A program made the position numbers and the translations under genes. This document shows positions 34,175-61,371 of a stretch of 64,000 bases of DNA, piece by piece. Within the stretch, counting starts at the first letter, position 1. Every line of letters begins with the position of its first letter. Where the stretch lies: the NCBI RefSeq assembly GCF_016859125.1, contig NZ_CP069338.1, positions 5,333,501 through 5,397,500 on the forward strand, written 5' to 3'. The notes under the pieces were generated by a model, which worked only from the letters and a program-made list of their open reading frames with translations, had not been told where the DNA came from and did no database searches. This DNA is from Archangium violaceum (GTDB lineage Bacteria; Myxococcota; Myxococcia; Myxococcales; Myxococcaceae).

Positions 34175-35224
34175 TTGAGCATCGAAACGACCGATGTTGA
34201 TAACATTACTCCCTTCACGGCGGAAACGCTGCACTCGGTGACTCGAGAGGACCGGGAGGTTCTTCTTGTGGTCGTCGCGGGGACCTTCACCTTGCCTCGT
34301 CCCTGTGGAGCATCCCGAGCCCCCGTCTTGCGCGATGAGCAGCTTCCCCCGAAGCTCGAAGACTCCTATTGGGGGGCTCCAGCCTGCTCCAGCCTGCGTT
34401 ACGAGGGCCAGAACGCATACTTCCGCCCAGGCACGGATATCTACCTGAATGGGCATGCCCGTGCGCAGCGTGGCCATCCTGTCAAGGCCATGGACGTCAG
34501 CCTGGCGGTAGGACATTGCCACAAGACCGTCCGGGTTTTTGGGGAGCGGCTCTGGATGTCTGGAATGGTAGGGCTCAGTCCGTCTTCTCCACTACCCTTC
34601 GAGTCCATGCCGCTCGTCTATGAGCGCGCCTTTGGAGGAACGGCCCGGGATGAGGAGGGGGGTGAGACGTTCGAGGCGAGGAATCCGGTAGGGCGCGGTT
34701 TCTATGTTTCGCGCAAGCAGGCGCGGGAGCAGCTCCTGCCGAACATTGAGGATCCTCAGGCGCTGGTGACTTCGTGGTCGGATCGGCCTCCACCCGCGGG
34801 CTTCGGCCCGGTTTCTCGTGGATGGCAGCCGCGGCTTGGGTATGCGGGCACCTACGATGCGGCCTGGGTCGAGAATCGCGCTCCCCTCTGGCCGAAGGAT
34901 CTCGATCCGCGCTTCTTCCAGGCGGCAACTCCTGGTCTCAACACGGGCTCCTACCTCCAGGGTGGAGAGCGGGTCCTGTTGGAGGGGATGCATCACGACG
35001 GTCCCCTCGCCTTCGCGCTTCCTCAATACCGCCTGTTGGTGAGGAGCATCTTCTCGGATCGTCAGGAGCAACGGGTGATGCGCCTGGATGCGCTCCTGCT
35101 CGAACCTGACGCGGGAACGTTCACGATGATGTGGCGCGCGGCGATTCCCCTGAATGGGAACCCTTTTGATCATCCCTACACACAGGTACGCCTCATGGAG
35201 TCATGGGAGGAACTCCCGAAATGA
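34175..35224 (+). CDS. DUF2169 T6SS effector adaptor
   Basis: 349 residues from TTG 34175, chosen for the run of seven Gs 6-12 bases upstream. DUF2169 features are visible: the N-terminal VVVAGTFTLP strand, PLVYERAFGG, the ARNPVGRGF motif (about 168-176), and the C-terminal RLLVRSIFSDRQEQRVM. DUF2169 proteins are cytosolic adaptors that load PAAR-like effectors onto the type VI secretion spike. It is first in a four-gene cassette and its stop overlaps the next start (ATGA). No VgrG, Hcp or sheath gene lies in the window, so the apparatus must be elsewhere. The 272 bp before it contain no gene. Confidence 0.87.
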   Translation: MSIETTDVDNITPFTAETLHSVTREDREVLLVVVAGTFTLPRPCGASRAPVLRDEQLPPKLEDSYWGAPACSSLRYEGQNAYFRPGTDIYLNGHARAQRGHPVKAMDVSLAVGHCHKTVRVFGERLWMSGMVGLSPSSPLPFESMPLVYERAFGGTARDEEGGETFEARNPVGRGFYVSRKQAREQLLPNIEDPQALVTSWSDRPPPAGFGPVSRGWQPRLGYAGTYDAAWVENRAPLWPKDLDPRFFQAATPGLNTGSYLQGGERVLLEGMHHDGPLAFALPQYRLLVRSIFSDRQEQRVMRLDALLLEPDAGTFTMMWRAAIPLNGNPFDHPYTQVRLMESWEELPK

Positions 35225-37389
35225 CACCGCGATACGCATCGACGGAAATCGCCGTCGTTGGGTTGGGCCTGTGTACACCTCTCGGGCTGGCGGCCCGGAA
35301 CACCGTGGCCGAGTGTGAGGCTGGCACGGTCCGTTTCTTTCGGACCCCGGTGATGGATCAGGAAGGTGAGTCCATTCGGGCCTCGATGCTCACCTTGTTG
35401 GATCCAGTGGGCTCGCGAACGGAGCGGATGCTGCCGATGGCCGTGACGGCCCTGCTCGAATGCCTCGGAGGTATGGCTGCGGCCCCGTTGCATCGCGTGA
35501 GAATGGTCCTGGCGCTTCCAGAAGTGGACAGTAAGGCTCCCGTTGATGTGGATGTGCTCGAGAAGGCTCTTCGCGAGTTCGCGGCTCCCGCCGTCCAATG
35601 GGATTCCGTGCCGACACTCCGTCTTGAGGAAGGACGAGCGGGCTTCTTCCTGGCGTTGAAGTCCGCCGTTTCCTTGCTGAAATCGGGACAGGCCTCCTTG
35701 GCACTGGTGGGCGCGGTGGATTCGATGTGCGATGTGGAGTCCCTGCGGCGACTCGCGGAGGAGGACAAGGTGTTGGGACCCTCCAACCCGGATGGCGTCA
35801 TTCCGGGTGAGGGGGCCGGCTTTGTCCTCCTGGCTCAGGTGGAGACCGCTCGCCGGTTGGGTCTCAGCGTTCGAGCCATCATTCCCGTTGTGGCTCTAGC
35901 GAAGGAGCCCCACCCGTTCCGCGGTGATTCTCCGCGATCGGCGGTGGGCCTCGCCGAGGCTTTCAAGAGCCTGCGCCAGCATCCGGGGATGAACGAGCGG
36001 CGGACGGACATCGTCCTCTCATGTCAACCCAATGGATATTTCTGGGCGTGGGAGTTCTCCATGGCCTACCTGCGCAACGCGAGTCTCATGCCGGAGCCTC
36101 TTCATGTGAGTCTCGTCTCCGACAGTCTGGGAGACGTTGGGGCGGGCGCTGGTGTGGTCCAACTCGGGCTGGCGTTGGCGCACCTGAAGCGATGTACTCG
36201 GGCAGGCCGGAGTGCACCGCGTGCGCTGCTCTATGGCTGTTCGGATACCGGGCAGGTGGGAGCCTGCATCATCGAGGGGGGGAGTATGAGCAAAGTCTAT
36301 GTCAATGGACGGTCGGTGGTCCACAAGGGGGACGGCCGGACGAATCTGTGTGCGACACCGGATGTCTGCAAGACACCGTCACCCGGTGGGCCTGTCCCGG
36401 TTCCATACGTCAATTCCGCGCGTGATGGAGACCTGTCCAAAGGCACCACGAAGGTTTCCATCGAGGGAAATCCGGTGGCGGTCCAGAGTTCGTGTCTGAG
36501 TACCAGCTCGGGTGACGAGCCAGGCACCGCCGGAGGGGGTCTCATTTCTTCGAAGACCAAGGGAAAGCTGACCTGGGGAAGCTACAGCCCGGATGTGAAG
36601 TTCGAGGGGAAGGGGGTCGTCCGATTCTTGGATGTCACCCAACACAACGGCAATACCTTCAATTCCGTATTCATCCAAGCGGGCGGAACGGGGTGGGCCT
36701 ACGGAGATGATGCGTCTCCCCTCCAGGAGTGTCCCCGCTGTGAGAAGCCCAAGCGGACCCATCGCATCATCGAGACTCCTGAGACCAAGGCCACTGCTCA
36801 GGGACTCGCTGCGGAGTTGATGAGCCTCTACGACCCGGTCGAGGACAAGAACGAAGTGCTCAAACCACCAGCTCGCAGGGGAAGGCCTCGACGGCCGTAC
36901 ATGATTGGGGTGCTCCTCTGCAAATGTGGCAAGAAGAAGTACGCCGCCATGTCTGGGGAAGGAGGAATGACGAGGGGCTTCGAGAAGGCGGCGAAGAAGC
37001 TCGGGTTCAGCACTTGTGGCCCCGTGGATTTCAGTGCCGTGCTTGATAGCAGTGGGCGGACGGAAAGCCGGTTGTTGTCGAACCCGGCTACGGGAATTCC
37101 GGTGGATATGCCGGGCTACAACAAACCCGGCGTCTGTGCCGCGCAGAAACTCATCCAACAAGCCCAGAGAGAAGGGCACCGGCCTGCCTTCATGACTGAG
37201 GAGTATTTCGACCCTCAAGGCTCGGGACGGGTCAAGATTACATATCGAAGATTGAATTCGAAACGGATTCGGAAAGACGCCATCGTGACCCATGTGTTCC
37301 GGAATGGAGACACCGTTCCTTCGTGCGATACGTGCAAGAAGCTCGTGACTCCCATGCTGTGCGGTAACAAGAAGCATCCTTGCAGCTGA
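35221..37389 (+). CDS. Thiolase-fold / DUF4150 PAAR-like / toxin fusion (T6SS effector)
   Basis: 722 residues in three parts. Residues 1-350 have the thiolase fold of beta-ketoacyl synthases (VVGLGLCTPLG, VIPGEGAGFVLL) but no catalytic cysteine at the expected site, so it is probably structural, as in other T6SS effector loci. Residues 356-490 are DUF4150, a PAAR-like spike tip (MSKVYVNGRSV..., ending VFIQAGG). Residues 491-722 are a Cys-rich toxin candidate with CPRC, LLCKCGKK, GVC639AAQKLI and C702-D-T-C705. An internal ATG (36286, codon 356) exactly at the DUF4150 start has its own ribosome site, so a shorter PAAR-toxin product is likely. ATGA overlap with the adaptor; followed by a SMI1/KNR4 immunity gene. 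Confidence 0.82.
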   Translation: MTPRYASTEIAVVGLGLCTPLGLAARNTVAECEAGTVRFFRTPVMDQEGESIRASMLTLLDPVGSRTERMLPMAVTALLECLGGMAAAPLHRVRMVLALPEVDSKAPVDVDVLEKALREFAAPAVQWDSVPTLRLEEGRAGFFLALKSAVSLLKSGQASLALVGAVDSMCDVESLRRLAEEDKVLGPSNPDGVIPGEGAGFVLLAQVETARRLGLSVRAIIPVVALAKEPHPFRGDSPRSAVGLAEAFKSLRQHPGMNERRTDIVLSCQPNGYFWAWEFSMAYLRNASLMPEPLHVSLVSDSLGDVGAGAGVVQLGLALAHLKRCTRAGRSAPRALLYGCSDTGQVGACIIEGGSMSKVYVNGRSVVHKGDGRTNLCATPDVCKTPSPGGPVPVPYVNSARDGDLSKGTTKVSIEGNPVAVQSSCLSTSSGDEPGTAGGGLISSKTKGKLTWGSYSPDVKFEGKGVVRFLDVTQHNGNTFNSVFIQAGGTGWAYGDDASPLQECPRCEKPKRTHRIIETPETKATAQGLAAELMSLYDPVEDKNEVLKPPARRGRPRRPYMIGVLLCKCGKKKYAAMSGEGGMTRGFEKAAKKLGFSTCGPVDFSAVLDSSGRTESRLLSNPATGIPVDMPGYNKPGVCAAQKLIQQAQREGHRPAFMTEEYFDPQGSGRVKITYRRLNSKRIRKDAIVTHVFRNGDTVPSCDTCKKLVTPMLCGNKKHPCS
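36271..36288 (+). promoter_or_regulatory. Internal ribosome binding site and start within the effector gene
   Basis: GAGGGGGGGAG lies immediately before the in-frame ATG at 36286, the natural first codon of the DUF4150 domain. It suggests that two formerly separate genes were fused by loss of the stop between them. Confidence 0.55.
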
Positions 37390-39688: not shown

Positions 39689-40489
39689 TCACTGCCCGAG
39701 CGACTGGGGCGGTGGCTTCGCGCTGAAGGCGGGCACGTAGCACTTGCCCTGGTATTCGTAGAGCACGTCCGGACATGGGGCTTTCAACTCGTGAGGCGTC
39801 CAGCAAGCACCGATGAGCTCCACCTCGGCGTAGCGGGTGCAGGGAGGGCGCTTCTGGCCTTTGAATGGCTCGCGCGGCAGTGGACGGGCGATCACGGATG
39901 ATTCTCCAGCGTCCGAGGTGTCCACGAGCGTCCCGATGTCGAAGGGGTCTGGAGTCCCGGCTACCGTGGACACCTCGTCGCTGGTAGGGGCGGGCGAGGT
40001 GCTCGCCAGGGGCTCCGGGCCGCTCGGGGGTTGGGACACGGGGGCCAGACGCACCAACGCGAACAGCAGGGCACACACCGCGGCGGCGCTCAACAGGCTC
40101 AGCCCCAAGCGCAAGAGAGGGCGGGGCTCGTAGGGAGAGGGAAGGGCTCGGGCCATGCGGCGAACGCCCTCGAGCATCCCCTCGAAGGTGAACACCAGTG
40201 ACTCCACCGATTGCTTCTCGGGGGACACGGCCCAGGGAGTCTGCTCCACTTGCATGGCGACATAGCGTGCCGAGTCCGAAGAACTGAAGAGCACCCGCCA
40301 GTCCTTCAGGGGGACTTTGTCCTCCTCGGAGGGCTTGAGCACCAGGGCCGTGGCTCCGCTCGTCTCGTGCGAGGCCAGGTAGAGTTCTCCCTGACCGTCA
40401 TCGGACTGCGGCACTTGCTCCTCGAGCCGGTACGGCCCCAGCTGCTCCAATTCCTCCTCGCTGCTCGCCTCGGTCTTCTTCTTGTCCAC
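39689..40489 (-). CDS. Kinase-like membrane protein, copy A
   Basis: 266 residues from a GTG with GAGGAG upstream. The N-terminus (LGPYRLEEQVPQSDDGQGELYLA) resembles the first strands of a Ser/Thr kinase N-lobe, but the glycine loop, VAxK lysine, HRD and DFG are absent. A membrane helix follows (about 126-147), then a Pro/Ser-rich linker and a C-terminal domain with CTRYAEVELIGACW and GKCYVPAF, the same tail style as myxobacterial receptor kinases. It is therefore a kinase remnant or a dedicated pseudokinase, anchored in the inner membrane. Roughly nine in ten residues match copy B (46765-47565). Confidence 0.7.
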   Translation of the reverse strand: MDKKKTEASSEEELEQLGPYRLEEQVPQSDDGQGELYLASHETSGATALVLKPSEEDKVPLKDWRVLFSSSDSARYVAMQVEQTPWAVSPEKQSVESLVFTFEGMLEGVRRMARALPSPYEPRPLLRLGLSLLSAAAVCALLFALVRLAPVSQPPSGPEPLASTSPAPTSDEVSTVAGTPDPFDIGTLVDTSDAGESSVIARPLPREPFKGQKRPPCTRYAEVELIGACWTPHELKAPCPDVLYEYQGKCYVPAFSAKPPPQSLGQ

Positions 40490-46764: not shown

Positions 46765-47565
46765 TCACAGTCCGAGCGACTGAGGCGGCGGCTTCGCGCT
46801 GAAGGCGGGCACGTAGCACTCTCCTTGGTACTCGTAGAGGACGTCCGGGCACGGGGCCTTGAGCTTGTGCGGCGTCCAGCAAGCACCGATGAGCTCCACC
46901 TCGGCGTAGCGGGTGCAGGGAGGGCGCTTCTGGCCTTTGAAGGGCTCGCGCGGCAGCGGACGGGCGAGCACGGATGATTCTCCAGCGTCCGAGGTGTCCA
47001 CGAGCGTCCCGATATCGAAGGGGTCCGGAGTCCCGGCTACCGTGGACACCTCGTCGCTCATGGGGGCGGGCGAGGTGCTTGCAAGGGGCTCCGGGCCGCT
47101 CGGCGGTTGAGGCACGGAGGCCAGATGCACCAGCGCGAACACCAGGGCACACACCGCGGCGGCGCTCGCCAGGCTCAGCCCCAAGCGCAAGAGAGGGCGG
47201 GGCTCGTAGGGAGAGGGAATGGCGCGGGCCATGCGGCGAACGCCCTCGAGCATCCCCTCGAAGGTGAACACCAGTGACTCCACCGATTGCTTCTCGGGGG
47301 ACACGGCCCAGGGAGTCTGCTCCACCTGCATGGCGACATAGCGCGCCGAGTCCGAAGAACTGATGAGCACCCGCCAGTCCTTCAGGGGGACTTTGTCCTC
47401 CTCGGAGGGCTTGAGCACCAGGGCCGTGGCTCCGCTCGCCTCGTGCGAGGCCAGGTAGAGCTCTCCCTGACTGTCTGCGGACTGCGGCACCTGCTCCTCG
47501 AGCCGGTACGGCCCCAGTTGCTCCAGTTCCTCCTCGCTGCTCGCCTCGGCCTTCTTCTCGTCCAC
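46765..47565 (-). CDS. Kinase-like membrane protein, copy B
   Basis: 266 residues, the same length and layout as copy A (39689-40489): degenerate kinase N-lobe, membrane helix at about 126-147, Cys-containing C-terminal domain ending SAKPPPQSLGL. Differences from copy A are scattered substitutions (KKTEA/KKAEA, HETSG/HEASG, VRLAPV/VHLASV), consistent with a duplication under protein-level constraint. GTG start at 47565. A sigma-factor-like fragment lies upstream on the same strand. ECF sigma genes next to receptor kinases are a known myxobacterial arrangement. Confidence 0.7.
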   Translation of the reverse strand: MDEKKAEASSEEELEQLGPYRLEEQVPQSADSQGELYLASHEASGATALVLKPSEEDKVPLKDWRVLISSSDSARYVAMQVEQTPWAVSPEKQSVESLVFTFEGMLEGVRRMARAIPSPYEPRPLLRLGLSLASAAAVCALVFALVHLASVPQPPSGPEPLASTSPAPMSDEVSTVAGTPDPFDIGTLVDTSDAGESSVLARPLPREPFKGQKRPPCTRYAEVELIGACWTPHKLKAPCPDVLYEYQGECYVPAFSAKPPPQSLGL

Positions 47566-51901: not shown

Positions 51902-52924
51902 TCAGAGGATCTTCATGGAGTGGGCCGCGAAGTTCTCGGTCCCCGATTGGGAGAGGTAGTCCTTGAGCGCCTTGCGCGCCTCCGCCTCGCTCGTATACGC
52001 CGAGTCGGGGCCGAGCGTCTTGTCCGGCCGGACGGCCTGGAAATCCTGCAGCTTGTCCCCCACGAGCGGATGGAAGACCACGGGGCGATTGGGCGAGAAC
52101 TGCTCGATGGTCTGGAGCTCCTGGCGATAGAGCACGCTCTTCGGATCATGGGTCCGCATGAAGGCGTGCGCCGGCCCCTGCGGGTTCTGCCTCACGAACT
52201 CCTCGGAGAGGTGGTTCCACATCGGCGTGACGGCCTTGGGGTCCTTGTAGATCTCCAACCCCGAGAGCGCCCGGCCGGCCGGTGTGCTCTCCAGCGTGGT
52301 GTACCCCTTCAGCTGGGCGTGCTTGCTCACGTCGTAGCCGCCCGACCAGAGCGCCAGCGGTCCCTGGCCCTGCTCGATGCGCAGGTAGGGTCCCATCTCC
52401 TGGGCGACCTTCTCGTAGTGCGGGTTGGAGGTGTCCGGCCTGGGCTTGTCCGGGGTGAAGGGCGTGGTCCGGCTCTCCTTCACGTCGGCCCGGATCTGCT
52501 CCTGGCGCTTCACGCCGTGGAGGATGTCGCCCCAGACCTCCGCGCTCTTCGCATCGCTCATGCCGAGCGCGGAGAAGGCCTTCTGGAACGCCGGTGCGTC
52601 GGGGTGCGAGAGGGGTGAATTCAGGTCGAGCACCTGGGCCGCGGTGGTGCTGTGCTTGCCCGACGACAGGGCCGGACCCATGGCCTGCTCCACCGGGATG
52701 CGCGGCTCCGCCAGGGTTCCCGCCAGCTCCGGGCGTGGGTTGGGTGCCAGGGGCCGCGGCGGGCGTTCGAAGCTGTCGGCGCTCTTCGGAATGCCGTGGG
52801 TCTGGGGCCCGCTCGGGCTCCGGAGGGGGTTGGGGCTCGCCGGAGTCCTGTCCGGAGTGGAGCTGGGCCGGATGCTCGGCGTCTGGGTGAGGTTCACTCG
52901 GGGCGGCCGGAAGCGGATGGTCAT
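51902..52924 (-). CDS. CD38-like ADP-ribosyl cyclase / NAD glycohydrolase toxin candidate
   Basis: 340 residues, no signal peptide. The first 85 residues are Pro/Ser/Thr-rich, followed by a helical middle. From residue 191 the four landmarks of the ADP-ribosyl-cyclase fold appear in order and spacing: Trp193 (ALWSGG), Glu212 (TTLESTPAGR), Trp236 (PMWNHLSEEF) and catalytic-type Glu269 (SVLYRQEL). Enzymes of this fold destroy or cyclise NAD+ and are used as polymorphic toxins. ATG 52924; longer starts read into the shared promoter module. It has a sigma-54 promoter (52960-52975). No immunity gene is adjacent; only an ACT-domain gene lies beyond the module. Confidence 0.65.
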   Translation of the reverse strand: MTIRFRPPRVNLTQTPSIRPSSTPDRTPASPNPLRSPSGPQTHGIPKSADSFERPPRPLAPNPRPELAGTLAEPRIPVEQAMGPALSSGKHSTTAAQVLDLNSPLSHPDAPAFQKAFSALGMSDAKSAEVWGDILHGVKRQEQIRADVKESRTTPFTPDKPRPDTSNPHYEKVAQEMGPYLRIEQGQGPLALWSGGYDVSKHAQLKGYTTLESTPAGRALSGLEIYKDPKAVTPMWNHLSEEFVRQNPQGPAHAFMRTHDPKSVLYRQELQTIEQFSPNRPVVFHPLVGDKLQDFQAVRPDKTLGPDSAYTSEAEARKALKDYLSQSGTENFAAHSMKIL

Positions 52925-52959
52925 GGGGGCACCGTTGTTCGGAGATGTGAAGGCAGCAG

Positions 52960-52975
52960 TGCAGCGCCCGTGCCA
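52960..52975 (-). promoter_or_regulatory. Sigma-54 promoter of the cyclase-toxin gene
   Basis: Minus-strand TGGCACGGGCGCTGCA against the consensus TGGCACG-N4-TTGCA: one mismatch, with the essential GG and GC 10 bp apart. Expected transcript start about 25 bases before the ATG. Confidence 0.75.
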
Positions 52976-53047
52976 GGGCGGGTGGGCCCGGAGATGAACG
53001 GGATTGCGCGGGTTTACATGCAGGCGGACCCGCGAGAGGGCCCGTGT

Positions 53048-53108
53048 GGTGACCGCCGTCACCGGAGTCCCCTGGTGAGCGGGGTCACCGGTGATGTCCG
53101 CTGTCACC
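53048..53108 (-). promoter_or_regulatory. Activator-site array upstream of the cyclase-toxin gene
   Basis: Palindrome GGTGACCGCCGTCACC (53048-53063), then GGTGAG-N4-GTCACC (53074-53089) and a further GTCACC at 53103. The GTCACC steps are 26 and 19 bp, repeated in the two sister modules. The first site is centred about 82 bp upstream of the -24 element, the place for a sigma-54 enhancer-binding protein. Confidence 0.65.
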
Positions 53109-53133
53109 AGGCGGGCGCCGGGCCCACGCCGGG

Positions 53134-53547
53134 TCAGCCCGGGGACGCGTCGCCGCGCGCGAGCTCGAGGAGCAGCGCCAGGGACTCCTCGGCCCGAGCG
53201 GAGGGCACGAAGAGGTGATCGTGGAAGTACGCCGAGACGGGGTTCACGCTGATGCCCCGGGCGGCCAGCCGATTCGTGATGGCGGCGAGGAATCCCACGG
53301 CCTCGAGGCTGGAGTGGACGGAGAGGGTCACCATCCGGAAGACGGCGGTGTAGGGGAGTCCGGCGGCCTCGGCCTTCTCACGGGAGAGGATGAGGGTGAG
53401 CCCTTCCTCCTCGTGGAAGAGCCCGAGGGGCTCGAGGGGGGCGACCTCGAGCAGGGAGCGCCGGGTGGTGAGGAAGACGAACTCGCCCTCTCTCAGCACC
53501 GGCCTCATCGACCTCAGCAGTACGCCCAGGTTCGTCTCGCCGGGCAT
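53134..53547 (-). CDS. ACT-domain protein (DUF2241-like)
   Basis: 137 residues from ATG 53547. The N-terminal half (LGVLLRSMRPVLREGEFVFLTT) and C-terminal half (FRMVTLSVHSSLEAVGFLAAITNRLAARGISVNPVSAYFHDHLFVP) match the two-ACT layout of DUF2241, a family of small cytosolic proteins that bind amino acids. It is not obviously part of the toxin modules but lies between two of them. Function unassigned. Confidence 0.83.
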   Translation of the reverse strand: MPGETNLGVLLRSMRPVLREGEFVFLTTRRSLLEVAPLEPLGLFHEEEGLTLILSREKAEAAGLPYTAVFRMVTLSVHSSLEAVGFLAAITNRLAARGISVNPVSAYFHDHLFVPSARAEESLALLLELARGDASPG

Positions 53548-53664
53548 GGTGTTGCATCCTCCCTACCCACGAAAGCGTGAGCGGCCGATCCCATACCTGG
53601 AGATCGACCGCTCGAGATAGGGGGCCGGGTGTGGCCCCCTTGTTCGGTGCTTCGGCCCTGGGAC

Positions 53665-54840
53665 TCAGACCTCCGTGGCCCTGGTCATGGACTCCTGAAC
53701 GGCGCCCGCGAGTCCGACCCGAGCCTTCTCCAGAAGGGGCTCGGCCTCAGCGGTCTTGAGGCTCTTCTCCATCAGGGACACGGGCTCCGAGGGCCTGCTG
53801 AGCATCTTCGGCGCAACGTGCCCGGCGTCCACCGGGTTCAGGATCTTGCTCGCCGTGGCGGTGCCCTCGTTCACGAGCCCCTTCACGGTCTCGAGGGCCT
53901 GGGTCGCGGTGTTGATGGCGTTGGCCACCGAGTTGAGGATGTTGCCAAGGCCCGACTGCAGGGAGGCGTCCGGCGACGTCAGGGAGCCGAGGTCAGGGGG
54001 CAGGCCACCGGCGGCGTACGGGTCCATCACCGGCCCACCGGCGAGAGCCGGGGGCAGGCCAGCAGCCGCGTACGGGTCCATCATCGGGGCGCCGGCCATG
54101 GCGTACGGGTCCATCATCGGGGCGCCGGCCATGGCGTACGGGTCCATCATCGGGGCGCCGGCCATGGCGTACGGGTCCATGCCAGCAGCCGCGTACGGGT
54201 CCATGCCAGCAGCGGCGTACGGGTCCATCGCCGGGCCACCGGTCATGGCGTACGGGTCCATGCCGGCAGCGGCGTACGGGTCCATGGGCGGGGCGCCGGC
54301 CATGGCGTACGGGTCCATCATGCCCAGGGCGCCAGGCAGCATGGTGGCCGCCTCGAGGCCCGCGCCAAGGACTCCGGCCGCGCCGCTCGCCACGCCGCCG
54401 ACAACGTCACCCACGGCCCCGAGGCCATTGCCGATACCGTTGCCGATGCCGCCAAAGCCGTTGCCGAAGCCGCCGAAGCCGTTGGGCTTCTTGAGGTTGT
54501 CCAGCGGGTTGCCCGGCTTGAAGCCGTCGAGGTTGAAGTCGGGCTTCTTGCCCGGGAAGTTGCCGTTGATGTCCGGGCGGGGCGAGGGCTTGGGCCCGCT
54601 GTCGGGCTTGATGTCGGGCTTCTTGCCCGGGATGTTGCCGTTGATGTCCGGGCGGGGAGAGGGCTTGGGTCCGCTGTCGGGCTTGATGTCGGGCTTCTTG
54701 CCCGGGATGTTGCCGTTGATGTCCGGGCGGGGCGAGGGCGTGGGCCCGTTGCCGGGCTTGATGTCGGGCTTCTTGGGACCCTTGATGTCGGGGAGGTCGA
54801 GCTTGGGGAACTTGAAGCCTTTGCCGATACGCATGGACAT
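53665..54840 (-). CDS. Pro/Gly-rich repeat protein, copy 1
   Basis: 391 residues (ATG 54840; the ATG at 54834 has better ribosome-site spacing). The N-terminus carries three 25-residue repeats of the form GPKPSPRPDINGNIPGKKPD, a Gly-rich hydrophobic segment follows (NGFGGFGNGFGGIGNGIG then VVGGVASGAAGVLGAG), then about ten copies of a decapeptide MDPYAMAGAP/AAAG, and a helical C-terminus (SLQSGLGNILNSVANAINTATQ). No signal peptide and no known domain. The shape (basic Pro-rich start, hydrophobic middle, tandem repeats) is that of an extracellular or translocated protein. Own sigma-54 promoter at 54909. Near-identical to 55966-57018 except for the C-terminus. Confidence 0.75.
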   Translation of the reverse strand: MSMRIGKGFKFPKLDLPDIKGPKKPDIKPGNGPTPSPRPDINGNIPGKKPDIKPDSGPKPSPRPDINGNIPGKKPDIKPDSGPKPSPRPDINGNFPGKKPDFNLDGFKPGNPLDNLKKPNGFGGFGNGFGGIGNGIGNGLGAVGDVVGGVASGAAGVLGAGLEAATMLPGALGMMDPYAMAGAPPMDPYAAAGMDPYAMTGGPAMDPYAAAGMDPYAAAGMDPYAMAGAPMMDPYAMAGAPMMDPYAMAGAPMMDPYAAAGLPPALAGGPVMDPYAAGGLPPDLGSLTSPDASLQSGLGNILNSVANAINTATQALETVKGLVNEGTATASKILNPVDAGHVAPKMLSRPSEPVSLMEKSLKTAEAEPLLEKARVGLAGAVQESMTRATEV

Positions 54841-54908
54841 ATCTCCTGAGAAGACGGGGGGCTTGGTGCCGAGAGAGTGCGGGGAACGCCTTGACGGGAA
54901 GGCGTTAT

Positions 54909-54924
54909 TGCAGCGCCCGTGCCA
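54909..54924 (-). promoter_or_regulatory. Sigma-54 promoter of repeat protein copy 1
   Basis: TGGCACGGGCGCTGCA on the minus strand, identical to the one at 52960-52975 and 57085-57100. Confidence 0.78.
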
Positions 54925-54996
54925 GGGTTGGCGAACTCGGAGACGAACGTGATTCCGAGGGCTTACGTGGAGGAGGACCCGCGTGAAGGCCCGGGT

Positions 54997-55064
54997 GGTG
55001 ACCGCCGACATCGGAGCTCCCTGGAGAGCGCAGTCACCAGTGATGTCTGTTGTCACCAGTCACC
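54997..55064 (-). promoter_or_regulatory. Activator-site array of repeat protein copy 1
   Basis: GGTGACCGCCGACATC (54997-55012, second half decayed) with further GTCACC at 55033, 55052 and 55059. The first two full steps keep the 26 and 19 bp spacing of the sister modules. Confidence 0.6.
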
Positions 55065-55223
55065 GCGGGACACCGGGTCGTTTGCCGCCCTCTCGGAACC
55101 CGAGGTTTTTGACACCCGCTCACCGGCCACCCTCTCGGACTCCTGCCGGGTTCATGTCACCGCGCCGTGTATCCTTCCCGCCCCTGTTGGGCTCAGGGTC
55201 TCACCTCCATCGAGGTCTCATTC

Positions 55224-55859
55224 ATGCGCATCCTCGGAACGATTGCTGTTTGAGTGGTCGCGTTGCTCGGTCCAGCGGCTCATGCGGATCTGCCCGTCGT
55301 CAAGACGGCGCAGGCGTCCTGGCAGGGCTGCGATTACACGATCAAGGTGTTGCAGGACGTTGATGAGCCCATGCCGCGGCCCCTCTACAGGGTCTCCGTT
55401 CAGAGTGCGGTCGTTTCGCCCGATACGTGCTCGTTGGTGCCCACGACCGTCGAACTGGGGACCTCGATACTCGAGCCGACGATCGCGATCGCGGCCACTG
55501 CCCAGGGACTCGTGGCCGCCTATTCCGGAGGCGAATACGTCAAGTTCGGGATCGGAAGATGGGCCGTCACCCATGTTCATCGCCTGAGCCCGAGCACGCT
55601 GCGGACCCTGCGGCTGGCGGAGCTGGCGGCGGGTTGGACGTCGGCCCCTGGAACCGCCGGAGGGCCGGGGACCGCGGAGGTGGATCAGATCACCATCTAC
55701 CCTTCCCACGTTGAAGTGACGGGCACGCGGAACGGGAACCTGTTCGGCGTGTATCCCAGCTACTCACCCTATCGGTTCGGTGAGGGCACTCACTTCGCCG
55801 CCTTCTACCCTGGCTTCTTCGGGCCGAACCAGCAGCAGCCCGTTCTGTTCATCTATTGA
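55224..55859 (+). pseudogene. Exported protein with a stop codon in its signal peptide
   Basis: ATG 55224 opens MRILGTIAV, then TGA (55251-55253), then the same frame continues VVALLGPAAHADLPVVKTAQASWQ and runs 200 codons to a stop at 55859. Joined, the signal peptide MRILGTIAVxVVALLGPAAHA would be normal with cleavage after AHA. So one base change has probably inactivated an exported beta-rich protein (PTTVELGTSILEPTIAIAATAQ). A restart at GTG 55254 would give a signal without positive charge. It sits between the two duplicated repeat-protein genes, on the opposite strand. Confidence 0.6.
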
Positions 55860-55965
55860 GCCTGTTTGTCTGGAAATGGCGCAGCCCCGCCCGAGATCGT
55901 TCATCGGGCGGGGTGCGCTTGGGTCCTGCGAGGGCACCTTCTCCAGGGCCCTCTTCGCCTGGGGC

Positions 55966-57018
55966 TCAGGCCTGCTCGGTGTTGGAGGCGCCCGCGAGTC
56001 CGCTCCGGGCCTGCGACAGCACGGTCTCGGCGGGCTTGAGGGCCTTCATCAGCTGGGGCTCGGCCTCGGCGGCAACCTTCTTCAGGGTGTCGGTCGCCGT
56101 GGCGGTGCCCCCGTCCACGAGCCCCTTCACGGTCTCGAGGGCCTGGGTCGCGGTGTTGATGGCGTTGGCCACCGAGTTGAGGATGTTGCCAAGGCCCGAC
56201 TGCAGGGAGGCGTCCGGCGACGTCAGGGAGCCCAGGTCAGGGGGCAGGCCACCGGCGGCGTACGGGTCCATCACCGGCCCACCGGCGAGAGCCGGGGGCA
56301 GGCCAGCAGCGGCGTACGGGTCCATCATCGGGGCGCCGGCCATGGCGTACGGGTCCATCATCGGGGCGCCGGCCATGGCGTACGGGTCCATGCCAGCAGC
56401 GGCGTACGGGTCCATGCCAGCAGCGGCGTACGGGTCCATGCCGGCAGCGGCGTACGGGTCCATGGGCGGGGCGCCGGCCATGGCGTACGGGTCCATCATG
56501 CCCAGGGCGCCAGGCAGCATGGTGGCCGCCTCGAGGCCCGCGCCAAGGACTCCGGCCGCGCCGCTCGCCACGCCGCCGACAACGTCACCCACGGCCCCGA
56601 GGCCATTGCCGATACCGTTGCCGATGCCGCCAAAGCCGTTGCCGAAGCCGCCGAAGCCGTTGGGCTTCTTGAGGTTGTCCAGCGGGTTGCCCGGCTTGAA
56701 GCCGTCGAGGTTGAAGTCGGGCTTCTTGCCCGGGAAGTTGCCGTTGATGTCCGGGCGGGGCGAGGGCTTGGGCCCGCTGTCGAGCCTGGTGTCGGGCTTC
56801 TTGCCCGGGATGTTGCCGTTGATGTCCGGGCGGGGCGAGGGCTTGGGCCCGCTGTCGAGCTTGGTGTCGGGCTTCTTGCCCGGGATGTTGCCGTTGATGT
56901 CCGGGCGGGGCGAGGGCGTGGGCCCGTTGCCGGGCTTGATGTCGGGCTTCTTGGGACCCTTGATGTCGGGGAGGTCGAGCTTGGGGAACTTGAAGCCTTT
57001 GCCGATACGCATGGACAT
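55966..57018 (-). CDS. Pro/Gly-rich repeat protein, copy 2
   Basis: 350 residues, same layout as copy 1 (53665-54840): 25-residue Pro-rich repeats (here with TKLDS/TRLDS variants), Gly-rich hydrophobic segment, about eight MDPYA... decapeptides, helical end. Identity to copy 1 is near complete up to the C-terminal 60 residues, which differ (KKVAAEAEPQLMKALKPAE). The DNA, including the upstream module, is also nearly identical, so the duplication is recent or maintained by gene conversion. ATG 57018; ATG 57012 has better ribosome spacing. Confidence 0.75.
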   Translation of the reverse strand: MSMRIGKGFKFPKLDLPDIKGPKKPDIKPGNGPTPSPRPDINGNIPGKKPDTKLDSGPKPSPRPDINGNIPGKKPDTRLDSGPKPSPRPDINGNFPGKKPDFNLDGFKPGNPLDNLKKPNGFGGFGNGFGGIGNGIGNGLGAVGDVVGGVASGAAGVLGAGLEAATMLPGALGMMDPYAMAGAPPMDPYAAAGMDPYAAAGMDPYAAAGMDPYAMAGAPMMDPYAMAGAPMMDPYAAAGLPPALAGGPVMDPYAAGGLPPDLGSLTSPDASLQSGLGNILNSVANAINTATQALETVKGLVDGGTATATDTLKKVAAEAEPQLMKALKPAETVLSQARSGLAGASNTEQA

Positions 57019-57084
57019 ATCTCCTGAGAAGACGGGGCTTGGTGCCGAGAGAGTGCGGGGAACGCCTTGACGGGAAGGCGTTAT

Positions 57085-57100
57085 TGCAGCGCCCGTGCCA
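57085..57100 (-). promoter_or_regulatory. Sigma-54 promoter of repeat protein copy 2
   Basis: TGGCACGGGCGCTGCA on the minus strand. The distance from the GC of the -12 element to the ATG at 57018 is about 68 bases, so the predicted 5' leader is about 55 bases. Confidence 0.78.
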
Positions 57101-57172
57101 GGGTTGGCGAACTCGGAGATGAACGTGATTCCGGGGGGTTCCGCGGAGGCAGGGCCGCGCGAGGGCCCGGGT

Positions 57173-57233
57173 GGTGACCGCCGTCACCGGAGCCCCCTGG
57201 GGTGCGCAGTCACCAGTGATATCTGCTGTCACC
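57173..57233 (-). promoter_or_regulatory. Activator-site array of repeat protein copy 2
   Basis: Palindrome GGTGACCGCCGTCACC (57173-57188) with GTCACC at 57209 and 57228, steps of 26 and 19 bp as in the sister modules. The array ends beside the stop codon (57236) of the flavoprotein gene. Confidence 0.65.
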
Positions 57234-57235
57234 AG

Positions 57236-58750
57236 TCACGGCAGGTAGCGCCCGGGGGCGAGGATGCCGTGGGGATCCAACGCGGCCTTGAGCGTCCTCA
57301 GCACCCTCGGCGAGTCATCCTCCGGAGCGATGGGGAGCACGGGCGACTGGATGCCCAACCGCGCCGGGTAGTAGCCCGCTTCACCCAGGGCCTGCTGCAG
57401 CGCATGGTGGCACGCCATCGCGCGAGCGTCCTCTCCCTCCACCTCCCGGTCATAGATGATCGCCACCACCAGGTAGGCACACCGCGCCGAGACGCCCAGC
57501 ACACACAGGTTGGGCTCGAAGCCGAACCGGAGCGGCAGGGGCTCGGCGAGCGCCAGCGCCGTCTCCACGTGGGAGCCCGTCATCGGCACGGCGCACGACA
57601 GCCAGATGAAGCCGCATCCGTCGCGCTCCGGCTCCGGTACCTCGGGTGGGGGCGAGCGCTTGCGCCAGTACATCATCCGAAGGTTGCGCGCCGAGGGCAC
57701 CTGCCGGAGCGTCCCCGGCCCCACCTCCTCTTCTCGCATACAAGAGAGGGTGGGCATGGCCTCCCCCAGGACGTGCTCCACCCGCTCCTGCGCCGCCTGG
57801 GCCTGGGCCTCGCTCGGGGCCTCGAGCACGAAGCTCAGGTGCCAGGGCGAGACGTTCAACCTGGCGCGCAGCTTCGCGCGGTGCGACTCCGGCAGCGGCG
57901 TGAGCCCCCGGGTCTCCTCCCACGGGTACTGGCCGAGCACGGACATCACCTTGTAGTCGTTCCACAGCGAGAAGGCCTCGCGCAGGGTGCCCTCCATCCG
58001 AAGCAGCCGCAGCCGCTCCACCACCGGGCCCAGCTGGGCGGGGTCCTCCAGCACGCCCGACACCAGCCGGAGGCAGGCCGCTCGCGGCGCCAGCCAGAAG
58101 GTCATCCGCGTCACGACCCCCAGGTTCGACTGGCTGAAGAGCCCATCCAGGCCGGGGCCCGCGCCCCAGCGCAGCACGGACGCCGCCTGGGCATGGGGGT
58201 AGCGCCCGGGCCCGGTGCGAAGGCACTCGCCCGTGGGCAGCACCACCTCCAGGCCACACACGTACTGGAAGATGTCCCCGTGAGGCCCCGTCCCGTCTCC
58301 CCGCTCGAGCGCGTTGCCGATGAGGCTCGACTGGGGTGGCCCGCCGATGGTGGCCAGCTGCAGCCGCGAGCCCCTCTCCTCCAGGAAGGCATGCGCCTGT
58401 TCGAACGTGACGCCCGGCTCCACGGTGAGGTACCCCAGCTCCTCGTCGAACTCGAGCACGCGATTCATCCGGCCCAGTTCCAGCAGCACGCCGCTGCGCG
58501 CCGGCACCCGCGAGCCATAGCCCTGGTTGCGCCCGGCGCTCACCGGGGTGACGGGGATGCGCATCTCCTGGGCGATGCGCAGGCAGGCGCGCACCTCCTC
58601 GGTGCTTCCGGGACGCAGCACCGCACCCACATCCTGGGTGGTGGCGAAGGTCGCCGTGCGCGCCCGGACGAGCGTCGACTCGTCGGTGAGCACGTGGTCC
58701 TCGCCCAGCTCCCGTCGCCACGCCTCGAGCGCCTCCCGCAGCCGCTCCAT
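57236..58750 (-). CDS. FAD-linked oxidase of the VAO / 4-cresol dehydrogenase class
   Basis: 504 residues. An N-terminal PCMH-type FAD-binding domain (about 45-230; VLRPGSTEEVRACLRIAQ, TPVSAGRNQGYGSR, TIGGPPQSSLIGNALERG) is followed by a cap domain and a C-terminal segment ending DPHGILAPGRYLP, the classic end of VAO/cresol-dehydrogenase flavoproteins. It would oxidise a phenol or alcohol with transfer of electrons to oxygen or a cytochrome. No signal peptide. Start ATG 58750 with GGAGGAG upstream. It is transcribed divergently from the 58975 operon. Confidence 0.85.
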   Translation of the reverse strand: MERLREALEAWRRELGEDHVLTDESTLVRARTATFATTQDVGAVLRPGSTEEVRACLRIAQEMRIPVTPVSAGRNQGYGSRVPARSGVLLELGRMNRVLEFDEELGYLTVEPGVTFEQAHAFLEERGSRLQLATIGGPPQSSLIGNALERGDGTGPHGDIFQYVCGLEVVLPTGECLRTGPGRYPHAQAASVLRWGAGPGLDGLFSQSNLGVVTRMTFWLAPRAACLRLVSGVLEDPAQLGPVVERLRLLRMEGTLREAFSLWNDYKVMSVLGQYPWEETRGLTPLPESHRAKLRARLNVSPWHLSFVLEAPSEAQAQAAQERVEHVLGEAMPTLSCMREEEVGPGTLRQVPSARNLRMMYWRKRSPPPEVPEPERDGCGFIWLSCAVPMTGSHVETALALAEPLPLRFGFEPNLCVLGVSARCAYLVVAIIYDREVEGEDARAMACHHALQQALGEAGYYPARLGIQSPVLPIAPEDDSPRVLRTLKAALDPHGILAPGRYLP

Positions 58751-58809
58751 GTCTCCTCCTTGCTTTCGCGGCGCTGGATCGCGACCGCCTCGCCCCGCCG
58801 AGTCTACTG

Positions 58810-58846
58810 GTGGTGACAGCTGTCACCACCTCGAACGGCAGTCACC
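58810..58846. promoter_or_regulatory. 20-bp perfect palindrome and activator site
   Basis: GTGGTGACAGCTGTCACCAC (58810-58829) is a perfect 20-bp palindrome containing GGTGAC-N4-GTCACC. A further GTCACC lies 19 bp on, at 58841, the same step as in the three minus-strand modules. It is centred about 106 bp upstream of the -24 element of the promoter at 58924. Confidence 0.7.
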
Positions 58847-58923
58847 AGGGGCAGCGGGGCCGGCCGGGGCTTTCGCCGGGAGGCTCCAGAGGGAAGCCGT
58901 GGCTCTTCCCTCTCGGGAAGGGT

Positions 58924-58939
58924 TGGCACGAGACCTGCT
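58924..58939 (+). promoter_or_regulatory. Sigma-54 promoter of the 58975 operon
   Basis: TGGCACGAGACCTGCT fits TGGCACG-N4-TTGCW with one mismatch. Expected transcript start near 58951, about 24 bases before the ATG at 58975. Confidence 0.72.
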
Positions 58940-58974: not shown

Positions 58975-60297
58975 ATGACCGCCCCTATCTCCGGTAACCG
59001 TCCCATCATGCTCCCCCAGAGCCAGACGACGTCTGACGTTGTCGCCCAGAAGGCCGTCCTGCCCCTGGCTCTCGAGCAGCAGTCCGCGCCTGTCGAGGCG
59101 AAGAAGCGGCTGGCGATGCCGCAGGACATCACGGCGTTCGAGCAGATGTCCGGCGGGTCCGCGCGCGGCGCCATGCCCGCCCTGCTCGGAAGCGTTGCGG
59201 ACAACCCCCTCCAGAAGAGCCTGGGGAAGCAGACCCTCATCAACACCCACCTCGAGGTGGCCGCCAAAGCCCTGGCCACCGCCCAGGCGGGCTTCGAGCT
59301 CGCGGCGGGCATCGCCTCGCAGCAGTTCGCCGGCCTGCGGAACGAGGCCGCGGGCGCCCTCTCGGGATTGTCGGCCCGGATGCCCCTGGACATCGCCAAC
59401 AGCGTCGCTGGCGCCATCAACAGCGGTACGGATCTGCGCCAGCTCGATGTCCTCCAGGGCATCGCTCATACCCAGGGTCCCCTGGCCGCGGGCAACCTCG
59501 AGGCGGGCCAGTACAGCGCCGACCAGTTGGGGCAGTACGGCGACCAGGGCAGCTACGGTGACTACGGCGGCTACGGTGAGACCGTCGACCCGATGAGCCA
59601 GTTCGGCGGCGTGGCCGACCTGGCCGGCGGCGTGGCCGACCTGGCCAGCGGCGTGGCCGACCTGGGTGATGCGTTCAGGAAGCCGAGCTCCAAGCCCTCC
59701 GCGCCGGAGTCCAAGCCCTCCGCGAAGCCCTCCGCCCCGGACGCCAAGCCCTCCGCGCCGGAGTCCAAGCCCTCCGCGAAGCCCTCCGCGCCGGAGTCCA
59801 AGCCCTCCGCCGAGAAGCCCTCCGCCCCGGACGCCAAGCCCTCCTCCGCGGCGGGCAAGGCCGATGACCTCGCCAAGAGCCTGCTCAAGACGGGTGGCAA
59901 GGCCGCCAGCAGGTTCGTCCCGGGCCTCAATGTCGCCATGGCGGGCCTCGACATCGCCAACGCCGTCAAGACCATCAAGGACCCCAATGCGAGCCTCGGC
60001 GACAAGATCACCTCGGGCATCGTCGCCGGAGGCTCGGCGCTCGCCGCGACCAACATCCCCATCGTCTCCCAGATTGGTGGAGCCATCTCGACGGGCGCCT
60101 CCGTCGCGGGCGAGGTGGTGAAGAACTTCGGAGGCGCCATCAAGGATGGCGCCAAGAAGGTCGGCGAGGGCATCAAGCATGCCGCCGAGAAGGTCGGCGA
60201 GGGCATCAAGGACACCGCCGAGAAGGTCGGCAAGGGCATCAAGGACACCGCCGAGAAGGTCGGCAAGGGCATCAAGGACTTCTTCAAGGGCTGGTAG
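58975..60297 (+). CDS. Repeat protein with C-terminal amphipathic 11-mer array
   Basis: 440 residues, no signal peptide. An N-terminal helical domain (about 30-175) is followed by a Gln/Gly/Tyr-rich stretch (QYSADQLGQYGDQGSYGDYG), a repeated GGVADLA segment, eight KPSAPES/KPSAPDA linkers, a hydrophobic helical domain (SRFVPGLNVAMAGLDIANAVKTIK..., GGSALAATNIP) and four 11-residue repeats AEKVGKGIKDT ending FFKGW. The last array is encoded by 33-bp DNA repeats (60151-60285) and forms a cationic amphipathic helix, as in membrane-active peptides. It shares the operator/sigma-54 layout with the minus-strand genes; 30 bp downstream lies a trigger-factor-like chaperone. Confidence 0.72.
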   Translation: MTAPISGNRPIMLPQSQTTSDVVAQKAVLPLALEQQSAPVEAKKRLAMPQDITAFEQMSGGSARGAMPALLGSVADNPLQKSLGKQTLINTHLEVAAKALATAQAGFELAAGIASQQFAGLRNEAAGALSGLSARMPLDIANSVAGAINSGTDLRQLDVLQGIAHTQGPLAAGNLEAGQYSADQLGQYGDQGSYGDYGGYGETVDPMSQFGGVADLAGGVADLASGVADLGDAFRKPSSKPSAPESKPSAKPSAPDAKPSAPESKPSAKPSAPESKPSAEKPSAPDAKPSSAAGKADDLAKSLLKTGGKAASRFVPGLNVAMAGLDIANAVKTIKDPNASLGDKITSGIVAGGSALAATNIPIVSQIGGAISTGASVAGEVVKNFGGAIKDGAKKVGEGIKHAAEKVGEGIKDTAEKVGKGIKDTAEKVGKGIKDFFKGW

Positions 60298-60327
60298 TTC
60301 CACCTCCGCGTTCCCGAGGGTCACTCC

Positions 60328-61371
60328 ATGAGCTCCATCGTGATTCCGCAGCTGGCCGCGTCGTACGAGCAGGACGATTCGTCGGTGTTGATGTCCCTTC
60401 CCCAGGTGGAGGCGCCCTCGCTCGAGGGGCTCTCCGTCACGATCTCCCCCCCGGAGGCGTTCACCCCGGAGCAGGTCCAGGAGCGCTTCCTGGAGCTGGC
60501 GCGTCCCCTGGCCACCGAGCGCTACCGCTATCCCAGCGAGAAGCTGGCGTGGAGGGATGAGATCCTGTTCGACATCGTGGGCTACAGCCACGGCAAGCTC
60601 ATCCCCTTCAGCCTGCGCACCGACGTGTGGATGACCCTGGCGCCCGAGCCCCTGCTGCCCGGGCTCTACGAGTCGCTCGTGGGCCGCTCGCCCCGGGAGA
60701 ACATCACCGTGGAGCTCACCCTGCCCGCCGACTACCCCGTGGAGTCCCTGCGGGGGGCGCCCGCGCGCTTCACCATCCAGCTCAAGGGGGCGCGTGAGGT
60801 GACCTACCCCGAGCTGAGCAGCCCCGCCTTCCTCCGGGCCTTCGGCTACGGCGACACGCTCGCGGAGGCCACGCGTGCCGTCCTCCGTCAGATGGAGGCG
60901 GAGGCCAAACAGCTGTTGCTGTGCCAGGTCCAGCGGCAGGTGCTGGCCACGGTGGCCTCGCGCACCCGGGTGAAGGTCCCCGCCGCGCTCATCGATGAGG
61001 AGATCCGCCGCCGTTGGAGCGCCAGCGAGGGCCGCACGATGAGCGAGCTGGGCTTCGACGAGGCTCTCCGGGAGGAGTCGCTCCGCGCGTGGCTGCGGGA
61101 CGCGTCGACGCGGGCCGAGGTGGAGCTGCGGCTGCGCATCGCCCTGGCCCTGGGCGCCATCAGCAAGCGGGATGGGCTGACCCCGAGCCGCGAGAAGGTG
61201 GAGAAGATCATCCTGGACGAGGCCAGGGCCTCCGGACTGCCGGTGGAAGAGGTGGTCGCCGCCCTGAGCGCCGAGCCCCAGAACCTGGCTCGCATCGATC
61301 AGGTGGCCTGGCACCTCACGGCCGTGGACCACGTCATGAGCCGGGCCAAGGTCCACATGGCGGCGGCCTGA
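60328..61371 (+). CDS. Trigger-factor-like FKBP chaperone
   Basis: 347 residues. After a short N-terminal tail comes an FKBP-like domain (about 60-170; EILFDIVGYSHGKLIPFSLRTDVWMTLAPEPLLPGLYESLVG, PADYPVESLRGAPARFTIQL) and a long helical C-terminal trigger-factor-type domain (about 180-335; VPAALIDEEIRRRWSASEGRT...). The ribosome-docking signature of true trigger factor is not seen, so it is a specialised paralogue. In the same sigma-54 operon as the 11-mer repeat protein, 30 bp apart, so it probably keeps that protein soluble until export. Confidence 0.72.
   Translation: MSSIVIPQLAASYEQDDSSVLMSLPQVEAPSLEGLSVTISPPEAFTPEQVQERFLELARPLATERYRYPSEKLAWRDEILFDIVGYSHGKLIPFSLRTDVWMTLAPEPLLPGLYESLVGRSPRENITVELTLPADYPVESLRGAPARFTIQLKGAREVTYPELSSPAFLRAFGYGDTLAEATRAVLRQMEAEAKQLLLCQVQRQVLATVASRTRVKVPAALIDEEIRRRWSASEGRTMSELGFDEALREESLRAWLRDASTRAEVELRLRIALALGAISKRDGLTPSREKVEKIILDEARASGLPVEEVVAALSAEPQNLARIDQVAWHLTAVDHVMSRAKVHMAAA

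What the first reader, a model, noticed from the sequence alone, without database searches (positions are those of the whole stretch)
58975..61371. Amphipathic 11-mer protein paired with a dedicated trigger-factor-like chaperone
A protein ending in four cationic amphipathic 11-residue repeats is co-transcribed with a trigger-factor paralogue. Housekeeping trigger factor is not normally encoded beside a substrate; a private chaperone suggests an aggregation-prone or membrane-active cargo held for export.
Basis: inference. Interest (0 to 1): 0.62.

Follow-up and report, generated by a model that had tools for sequence, protein, structure and literature searches.

The report
Hydrophobic protein with private trigger-factor-like chaperone
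Two neighbouring genes in a predatory soil bacterium (a myxobacterium) make a water-shunning helical protein and a folding helper that appears reserved for it; the pair recurs, nearly always side by side, across the myxobacterial family, so a general housekeeping chaperone seems to have been turned into a dedicated one.

Summary
Window 58975-60297 encodes a 440-aa protein ending in about 4.5 amphipathic 11-mers. 30 bp downstream, 60328-61371 encodes a 347-aa trigger-factor-like protein with the PPIase and chaperone domains but no ribosome-binding domain.

The genome also has an ordinary tig-clpP-clpX locus. In 147 Myxococcia genomes, 135 of 145 ribosome-domain-less copies lie directly downstream of a partner. 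The own genome has three pairs. Pairs keep together while other neighbours change, and the two gene trees match (Mantel 0/5000).

The interpretation needs one correction. The 11-mer tail occurs mainly in the window's clade. What tracks the chaperone is a ~90-aa hydrophobic helical C-terminal domain with an invariant ATNIPxxSQ motif (32/32 copies with chaperone, 3/13 without).

Best reading: a private, ribosome-independent holdase/PPIase for a hydrophobic, probably membrane-acting client. Membrane activity and export are inferred. Ribosome-domain-less trigger-factor homologues of Myxococcus are published (PMC11559001); a search of that paper's main text found no mention of a partner gene. In the window's clade the pair shares a sigma-54 promoter signature with about a dozen effector-like genes.

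The parts
58812..58827 (.). perfect palindrome GGTGACAGCTGTCACC, candidate activator site; a further half-site GTCACC lies at 58841-58846
   Evidence: 23 genome sites at <=2 mismatches vs 3 for the reversed-pattern control; conserved upstream of orthologues L060, L061, L062
58924..58939 (+). sigma-54-type -24/-12 promoter TGGCACGAGACCTGCT
   Evidence: conserved in L060, L061, L062; combined box plus promoter pattern has 0 matches to the reversed control
58975..60297 (+). cargo/partner gene, 440 aa, no recognised Pfam domain
   Evidence: paralogues at C1:11513186 and C1:6798958
59839..60126 (+). conserved ~90-aa hydrophobic helical C-terminal domain (RFVPGLNVAxAxxD...AATNIPxVSQ)
   Evidence: alignment A3 of 25 members; found in 150 listed places in 72 of 147 Myxococcia genomes
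60046..60072 (+). ATNIPIVSQ motif, invariant in all copies paired with the chaperone; candidate docking site
   Evidence: 32/32 with chaperone, 3/13 without
60127..60294 (+). cationic amphipathic 11-mer tail, ~4.5 repeats, ending GW; clade-specific extension
   Evidence: related tails of 1-3 repeats in L060-L063
60328..61371 (+). trigger-factor-like chaperone, 347 aa, FKBP-type PPIase domain plus C-terminal chaperone domain, no ribosome-binding domain
   Evidence: AlphaFold2 pLDDT 87.8; Foldseek best hits are trigger factors
51902..52924 (-). co-regulated effector-like protein (Pro-rich N-terminus, DSFE motif); promoter at 52975-52960, boxes at ~53048-53107
53665..54840 (-). co-regulated protein with DPYA repeats; promoter at 54924-54909
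55966..57018 (-). co-regulated near-duplicate protein with DPYA repeats; promoter at 57100-57085

Best explanation
The two genes form a chaperone-client module. The client (58975-60297) is a mostly helical, Ala/Gly-rich protein with a disordered N-terminus and a moderately hydrophobic C-terminal helical domain. The downstream protein is a trigger factor freed from the ribosome by loss of its ribosome-binding domain. It binds the newly made client, most likely at its C-terminal hydrophobic domain around the invariant ATN-I-P-xxSQ segment (a prolyl site that a PPIase could read), and keeps it soluble until the client reaches a membrane or an export route. In the window's clade the client has gained an amphipathic 11-mer tail that probably binds lipid surfaces, and the pair is switched on by a sigma-54 activator together with other effector-like proteins. 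Shown: domain make-up, pairing, co-inheritance, motif-chaperone association, promoter signature. Inferred: direct binding, docking at ATNIPxxSQ, membrane activity, export.
For: Adjacency in 135 of 145 copies in 147 genomes, same strand. In the all-bacteria scan, 27 of 28 evaluable ribosome-domain-less loci have the partner (L070 and L075 are truncated contigs, L090 is an ordinary tig). Three pairs in the own genome. No other neighbour family is shared by all the pairs. Mirror trees r=0.76, Mantel 0/5000. Several unpaired copies lie beside decayed partners or chaperone remnants. ATNIPxxSQ present in 32/32 domain copies with the chaperone nearby and 3/13 without. Confident PPIase plus chaperone-domain model. 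Published Myxococcus homologues do not bind ribosomes but assist refolding (PMC11559001).
Against: No binding data. The domain is only borderline hydrophobic (best 19-residue mean 1.35 Kyte-Doolittle), so it is not a classical transmembrane helix. The client model is low confidence (pLDDT 62.7, no PDB fold match). No secretion genes are linked. Published M. xanthus deletions of ribosome-domain-less homologues affect stress growth and sporulation, not predation, and pull-downs gave many substrates (PMC11559001). Orphan chaperones (L081) and a few partners without one exist.
Confidence: 0.62

Rival explanations
1. The trigger-factor-like protein is a general post-translational chaperone retained by subfunctionalisation after duplication, with many substrates; its neighbour is just one client, perhaps a stress or spore-associated membrane protein.
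For: PMC11559001 reports many, mostly distinct pull-down partners and stress or sporulation phenotypes for the M. xanthus homologues.
Against: Adjacency in 93% of copies, co-duplication as a unit and matching trees are not expected of a general chaperone.
Confidence: 0.2
2. A toxin-antidote-like pair: the upstream protein is toxic to the producer's own membrane and the chaperone neutralises it.
For: Two-gene cassette, variable genomic context, amphipathic and hydrophobic client; orphan chaperones persist where the partner has lost its domain.
Against: Partners persist with the chaperone decayed or absent (L121, L129), and published deletions of the homologues are viable with normal growth at 30 C. 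No PADLOC match.
Confidence: 0.08
3. The client is cargo of a Sec-independent injection or secretion route used against prey, and the trigger-factor-like protein is the export chaperone, analogous to Eag or type III chaperones.
For: Window clade shares a promoter signature with effector-like genes (exotoxin-A-catalytic-like domain, M4 protease, thaumatin-like). Shared N-terminal DxF[DE] motif. Effectors of the myxobacterial Kil/T3SS* machinery are unknown (PMC10433427).
Against: No machinery linked to the pair; most paired copies lack the sigma-54 signature; no predation defect in published deletions.
Confidence: 0.2
4. Adjacency is only inherited synteny of one ancestral locus without functional meaning.
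For: Closely related species share local synteny, e.g. the Corallococcus loci.
Against: Up to six pairs per genome at different loci, changing neighbours across clades, mirrored trees.
Confidence: 0.04

Closest known systems
N-terminal-deficient trigger factor homologues of Cystobacterineae (M. xanthus MXAN_6153, MXAN_1178, MXAN_1713; Wan et al. 2024, PMC11559001)
   Same: Lack the GFRxGK ribosome-binding domain, keep PPIase and C-terminal domains, several copies per genome beside one full trigger factor
   Different: That paper describes subfunctionalised general chaperones. A term search of its main text found no mention of a neighbouring gene or operon; the conserved client gene, its domain and the ATNIPxxSQ motif are additions here. 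I did not map the MXAN numbers to my loci.
Housekeeping trigger factor (tig, TIGR00115)
   Same: Homologous PPIase and C-terminal chaperone domains
   Different: No ribosome-binding domain, not in tig-clpP-clpX, below the TIGR00115 cut-off (124.7 vs 180.2 bits)
Eag (DUF1795) chaperones of T6SS transmembrane-domain effectors (PMC7773334, abstract seen)
   Same: Works alike in outline: a chaperone encoded with a client shields hydrophobic client helices
   Different: Unrelated fold, no prePAAR motif or PAAR domain in the client, no T6SS gene beside the pair
Amphipathic 11-mer repeat proteins (alpha-synuclein, LEA, apolipoprotein type; from general knowledge)
   Same: Period-11 amphipathic cationic helix
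   Different: No sequence family match; only a clade-specific tail of an otherwise different protein

Membership tests
Trigger factor (tig) proper | N-terminal ribosome-binding domain with GFRxGK | tested here: not met
   Matches begin at E. coli residue 112 and TIGR00115 position 102; no GFR motif in the sequence
Trigger factor (tig) proper | Trigger_C chaperone domain | tested here: met
   Pfam PF05698 6e-17; model and Foldseek
Trigger factor (tig) proper | FKBP-type PPIase domain | tested here: met
   Fold matches 1l1p, SlyD, FKBP; catalytic competence not tested (Pfam FKBP_C only 0.11)
N-terminal-deficient trigger factor homologues (Wan 2024) | Ribosome-binding motif absent, PPIase and C-domain kept, multiple copies beside one full copy | tested here: met
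N-terminal-deficient trigger factor homologues (Wan 2024) | No ribosome binding in vitro | not testable with these tools
   Reported for M. xanthus homologues (PMC11559001)
Eag / DUF1795 T6SS chaperones | DUF1795 domain; client with PAAR/prePAAR | tested here: not met
   No such Pfam match in either protein
Type III secretion class II chaperones | TPR fold | tested here: not met
   Trigger-factor fold instead
Known pore-forming or translocation domains (e.g. Diphtheria_T) | Family match of the client domain | tested here: inconclusive
   2 of 25 members, best E 0.003 only; no PDB sequence or fold match

The most novel reading that the evidence does not exclude
Myxobacteria turned trigger factor into a family of ribosome-free export chaperones that read an ATNIPxxSQ docking motif. 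In Archangium-type genomes the pair feeds a sigma-54-controlled, Sec-independent effector pathway whose cargoes share a Pro-rich N-terminus with a DxF[DE] signature, possibly the missing cargo of the predation machinery.
Probability: 0.15. Interest if true: 0.85.

Novelty: new variant of a known kind. Interest (0 to 1): 0.6.

Why it matters
Trigger factor is regarded as the general ribosome-bound chaperone. A lineage in which copies shed the ribosome and became tied to one client each would show how a general chaperone becomes a dedicated one. It also gives a ready co-purification test and a motif to mutate, and it reinterprets the published M. xanthus homologues. If the client is membrane-acting or exported, it may lead to unknown myxobacterial effectors.

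Tried and rejected
The hypothesis that the chaperone follows the 11-mer tail: rejected, since most paired copies lack it. L090 as a distant pair: rejected, it is an ordinary tig-clpP-clpX. The own-genome hit at C1:3961430 as a fourth client: rejected as a helical look-alike in an unrelated protein. Client structure: the AlphaFold2 model is too weak and Foldseek gave no match. PDB, Pfam, NCBIfam and PADLOC give no family for the client. A conserved third gene or secretion machinery beside the pair: none found. Papers naming the presumed M. xanthus neighbours: none found.

Full report
Observation. The last 56 residues of the first protein are 11-mers. Identity at lag 11 is 0.69, and no shuffle of 5000 reached the helical moment. 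The second protein aligns with E. coli trigger factor residues 112-417. It has Trigger_C and a confident model of PPIase plus chaperone domains (pLDDT 87.8) whose best PDB matches are trigger factors. It lacks the ribosome-binding domain.

The genome (12.68 Mb, one contig; its nearest relatives are Archangium, which I infer from loci L061/L062 and genome G044) has a full trigger factor in a tig-clpP-clpX locus and three ribosome-domain-less copies. Each of the three lies just downstream of a paralogue of the 440-aa protein. A scan of all bacterial and archaeal species gave 31 loci; one is an ordinary tig (L090) and two are truncated contigs. Of the 28 left, 27 carry the partner immediately upstream. 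In 147 Myxococcia genomes there are 145 such copies in 71 genomes, 135 of them paired. Some unpaired ones are at contig ends, and several others inspected sit next to decayed partners (L126, L127), while L121 is a partner with a chaperone remnant. L081 looks like a true orphan.

Is the linkage functional? Apart from the pair, no neighbour family is common to all the loci; other neighbours are lineage-specific. The trees of the client domain and the chaperone agree in their main clades (r=0.76; 0 of 5000 permutations), so the two genes were duplicated and inherited as one unit.

What the chaperone follows. The 11-mer tail is found essentially only in the window's clade (1 to about 5 repeats in the window and L060-L063), with a short similar end in own-genome copy 3. 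In most other members the protein ends at a ~90-aa domain with invariant R, F, P, G, N, A, D in its first half and ATNIPxxSQxG in its second. Homologous domains without a chaperone keep the first half but lack ATNIPxxSQ (L122-L125, L130-L135). The counts are 32/32 with motif among domains with a chaperone nearby and 3/13 without. These copies are related by descent, so the Fisher value of 9e-8 overstates the independence. The domain is helical in the model but poorly resolved, moderately hydrophobic, and matches no known family with confidence.

Regulation in this clade. Upstream of the window pair lie GGTGACAGCTGTCACC and a sigma-54-type promoter. The same arrangement is present in L060, L061 and L062 but not in other pairs. 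In the own genome the box occurs 23 times at up to two mismatches (control 3), often in tandem about 20 bp apart. The box plus promoter pattern gave 14 matches with none for the reversed control. Downstream genes mostly encode proteins with a Pro/Ser-rich N-terminus and varied C-termini: an exotoxin-A-catalytic-like domain, an M4 protease, a thaumatin-like domain and unknown domains. Six of 13 carry D[GSRAT][FW][DE] in the first 130 residues (0.09 expected by shuffling), as do 7 of 19 clients; about 3 of some 220 unrelated ORFs do. This motif was chosen after the fact.

Mechanism. Most likely the ribosome-free trigger factor is the client's own holdase/PPIase, binding at the ATNIPxxSQ-bearing hydrophobic domain, until the client reaches a membrane or an export route. 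Pairing, co-inheritance and motif association are shown. Binding, docking site, membrane action and export are inferred.

Known work. Wan et al. 2024 (PMC11559001) reported that multiple trigger factors occur in Cystobacterineae and that only one copy keeps the ribosome-binding motif. The M. xanthus extra copies do not bind ribosomes and assist refolding. Two affect sporulation and one forms inclusion bodies in E. coli; predation is normal. A search of its main text found no mention of operons or adjacent genes; supplements could not be read. The chaperone is therefore a member of a known group, and the conserved client gene is the addition. Eag chaperones (PMC7773334) are the nearest functional analogue but unrelated in fold.

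Noticed in passing
own genome, loci L048-L051, L054-L057, L102; window 51902-58939: A sigma-54 regulon marked by tandem GGTGACNNNNGTCACC boxes upstream of TGGCAYR-N5-TGC promoters, controlling about a dozen scattered effector-like genes; the activator is unidentified.
   Followed up: partly
N-termini of proteins in L048, L049, L050, L054, L055, window 51902-52924, and clients in L066, L067, L074, L080, L084, L085, L087: Pro/Ser-rich N-terminus followed by a D[GSR][FW][DE] motif around residues 20-80, enriched far above shuffles; a possible sorting signal (motif chosen post hoc).
   Followed up: partly
L054:4301-5146 (+): Regulon protein with an exotoxin-A-catalytic-like ADP-ribosyltransferase domain (Pfam PF09009, 4e-24), suggesting a eukaryotic target.
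   Followed up: no
L122, L123, L124, L135 and L125, L130-L134: Two further protein groups carry the first half of the client domain without ATNIPxxSQ and without a chaperone gene; one group has an unknown middle domain, the other is under 200 aa.
   Followed up: partly
window 53665-54840 (-) and 55966-57018 (-): Near-duplicate genes with DPYA repeats and near-identical promoters; the L060 client also carries DPYA repeats.
   Followed up: no
window 34175-37389 (+): DUF2169 gene followed by a protein with ketoacyl-synthase-like and Tox-PAAR-like domains: a likely type VI secretion cargo cluster.
   Followed up: no
window 39689-40489 and 46765-47565 (-): Two nearly identical ORFs about 7 kb apart (MD[KE]KK[TA]EASSEEELEQLGPYRLEEQVPQS...), a duplicated segment.
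   Followed up: no
L085 (BNCN01000002.1, labelled Comamonas sp. KCTC 72670): Carries a pair nearly like that of Myxococcus loci L087/L088 with the same neighbours; probably a mislabelled or contaminated record.
   Followed up: no
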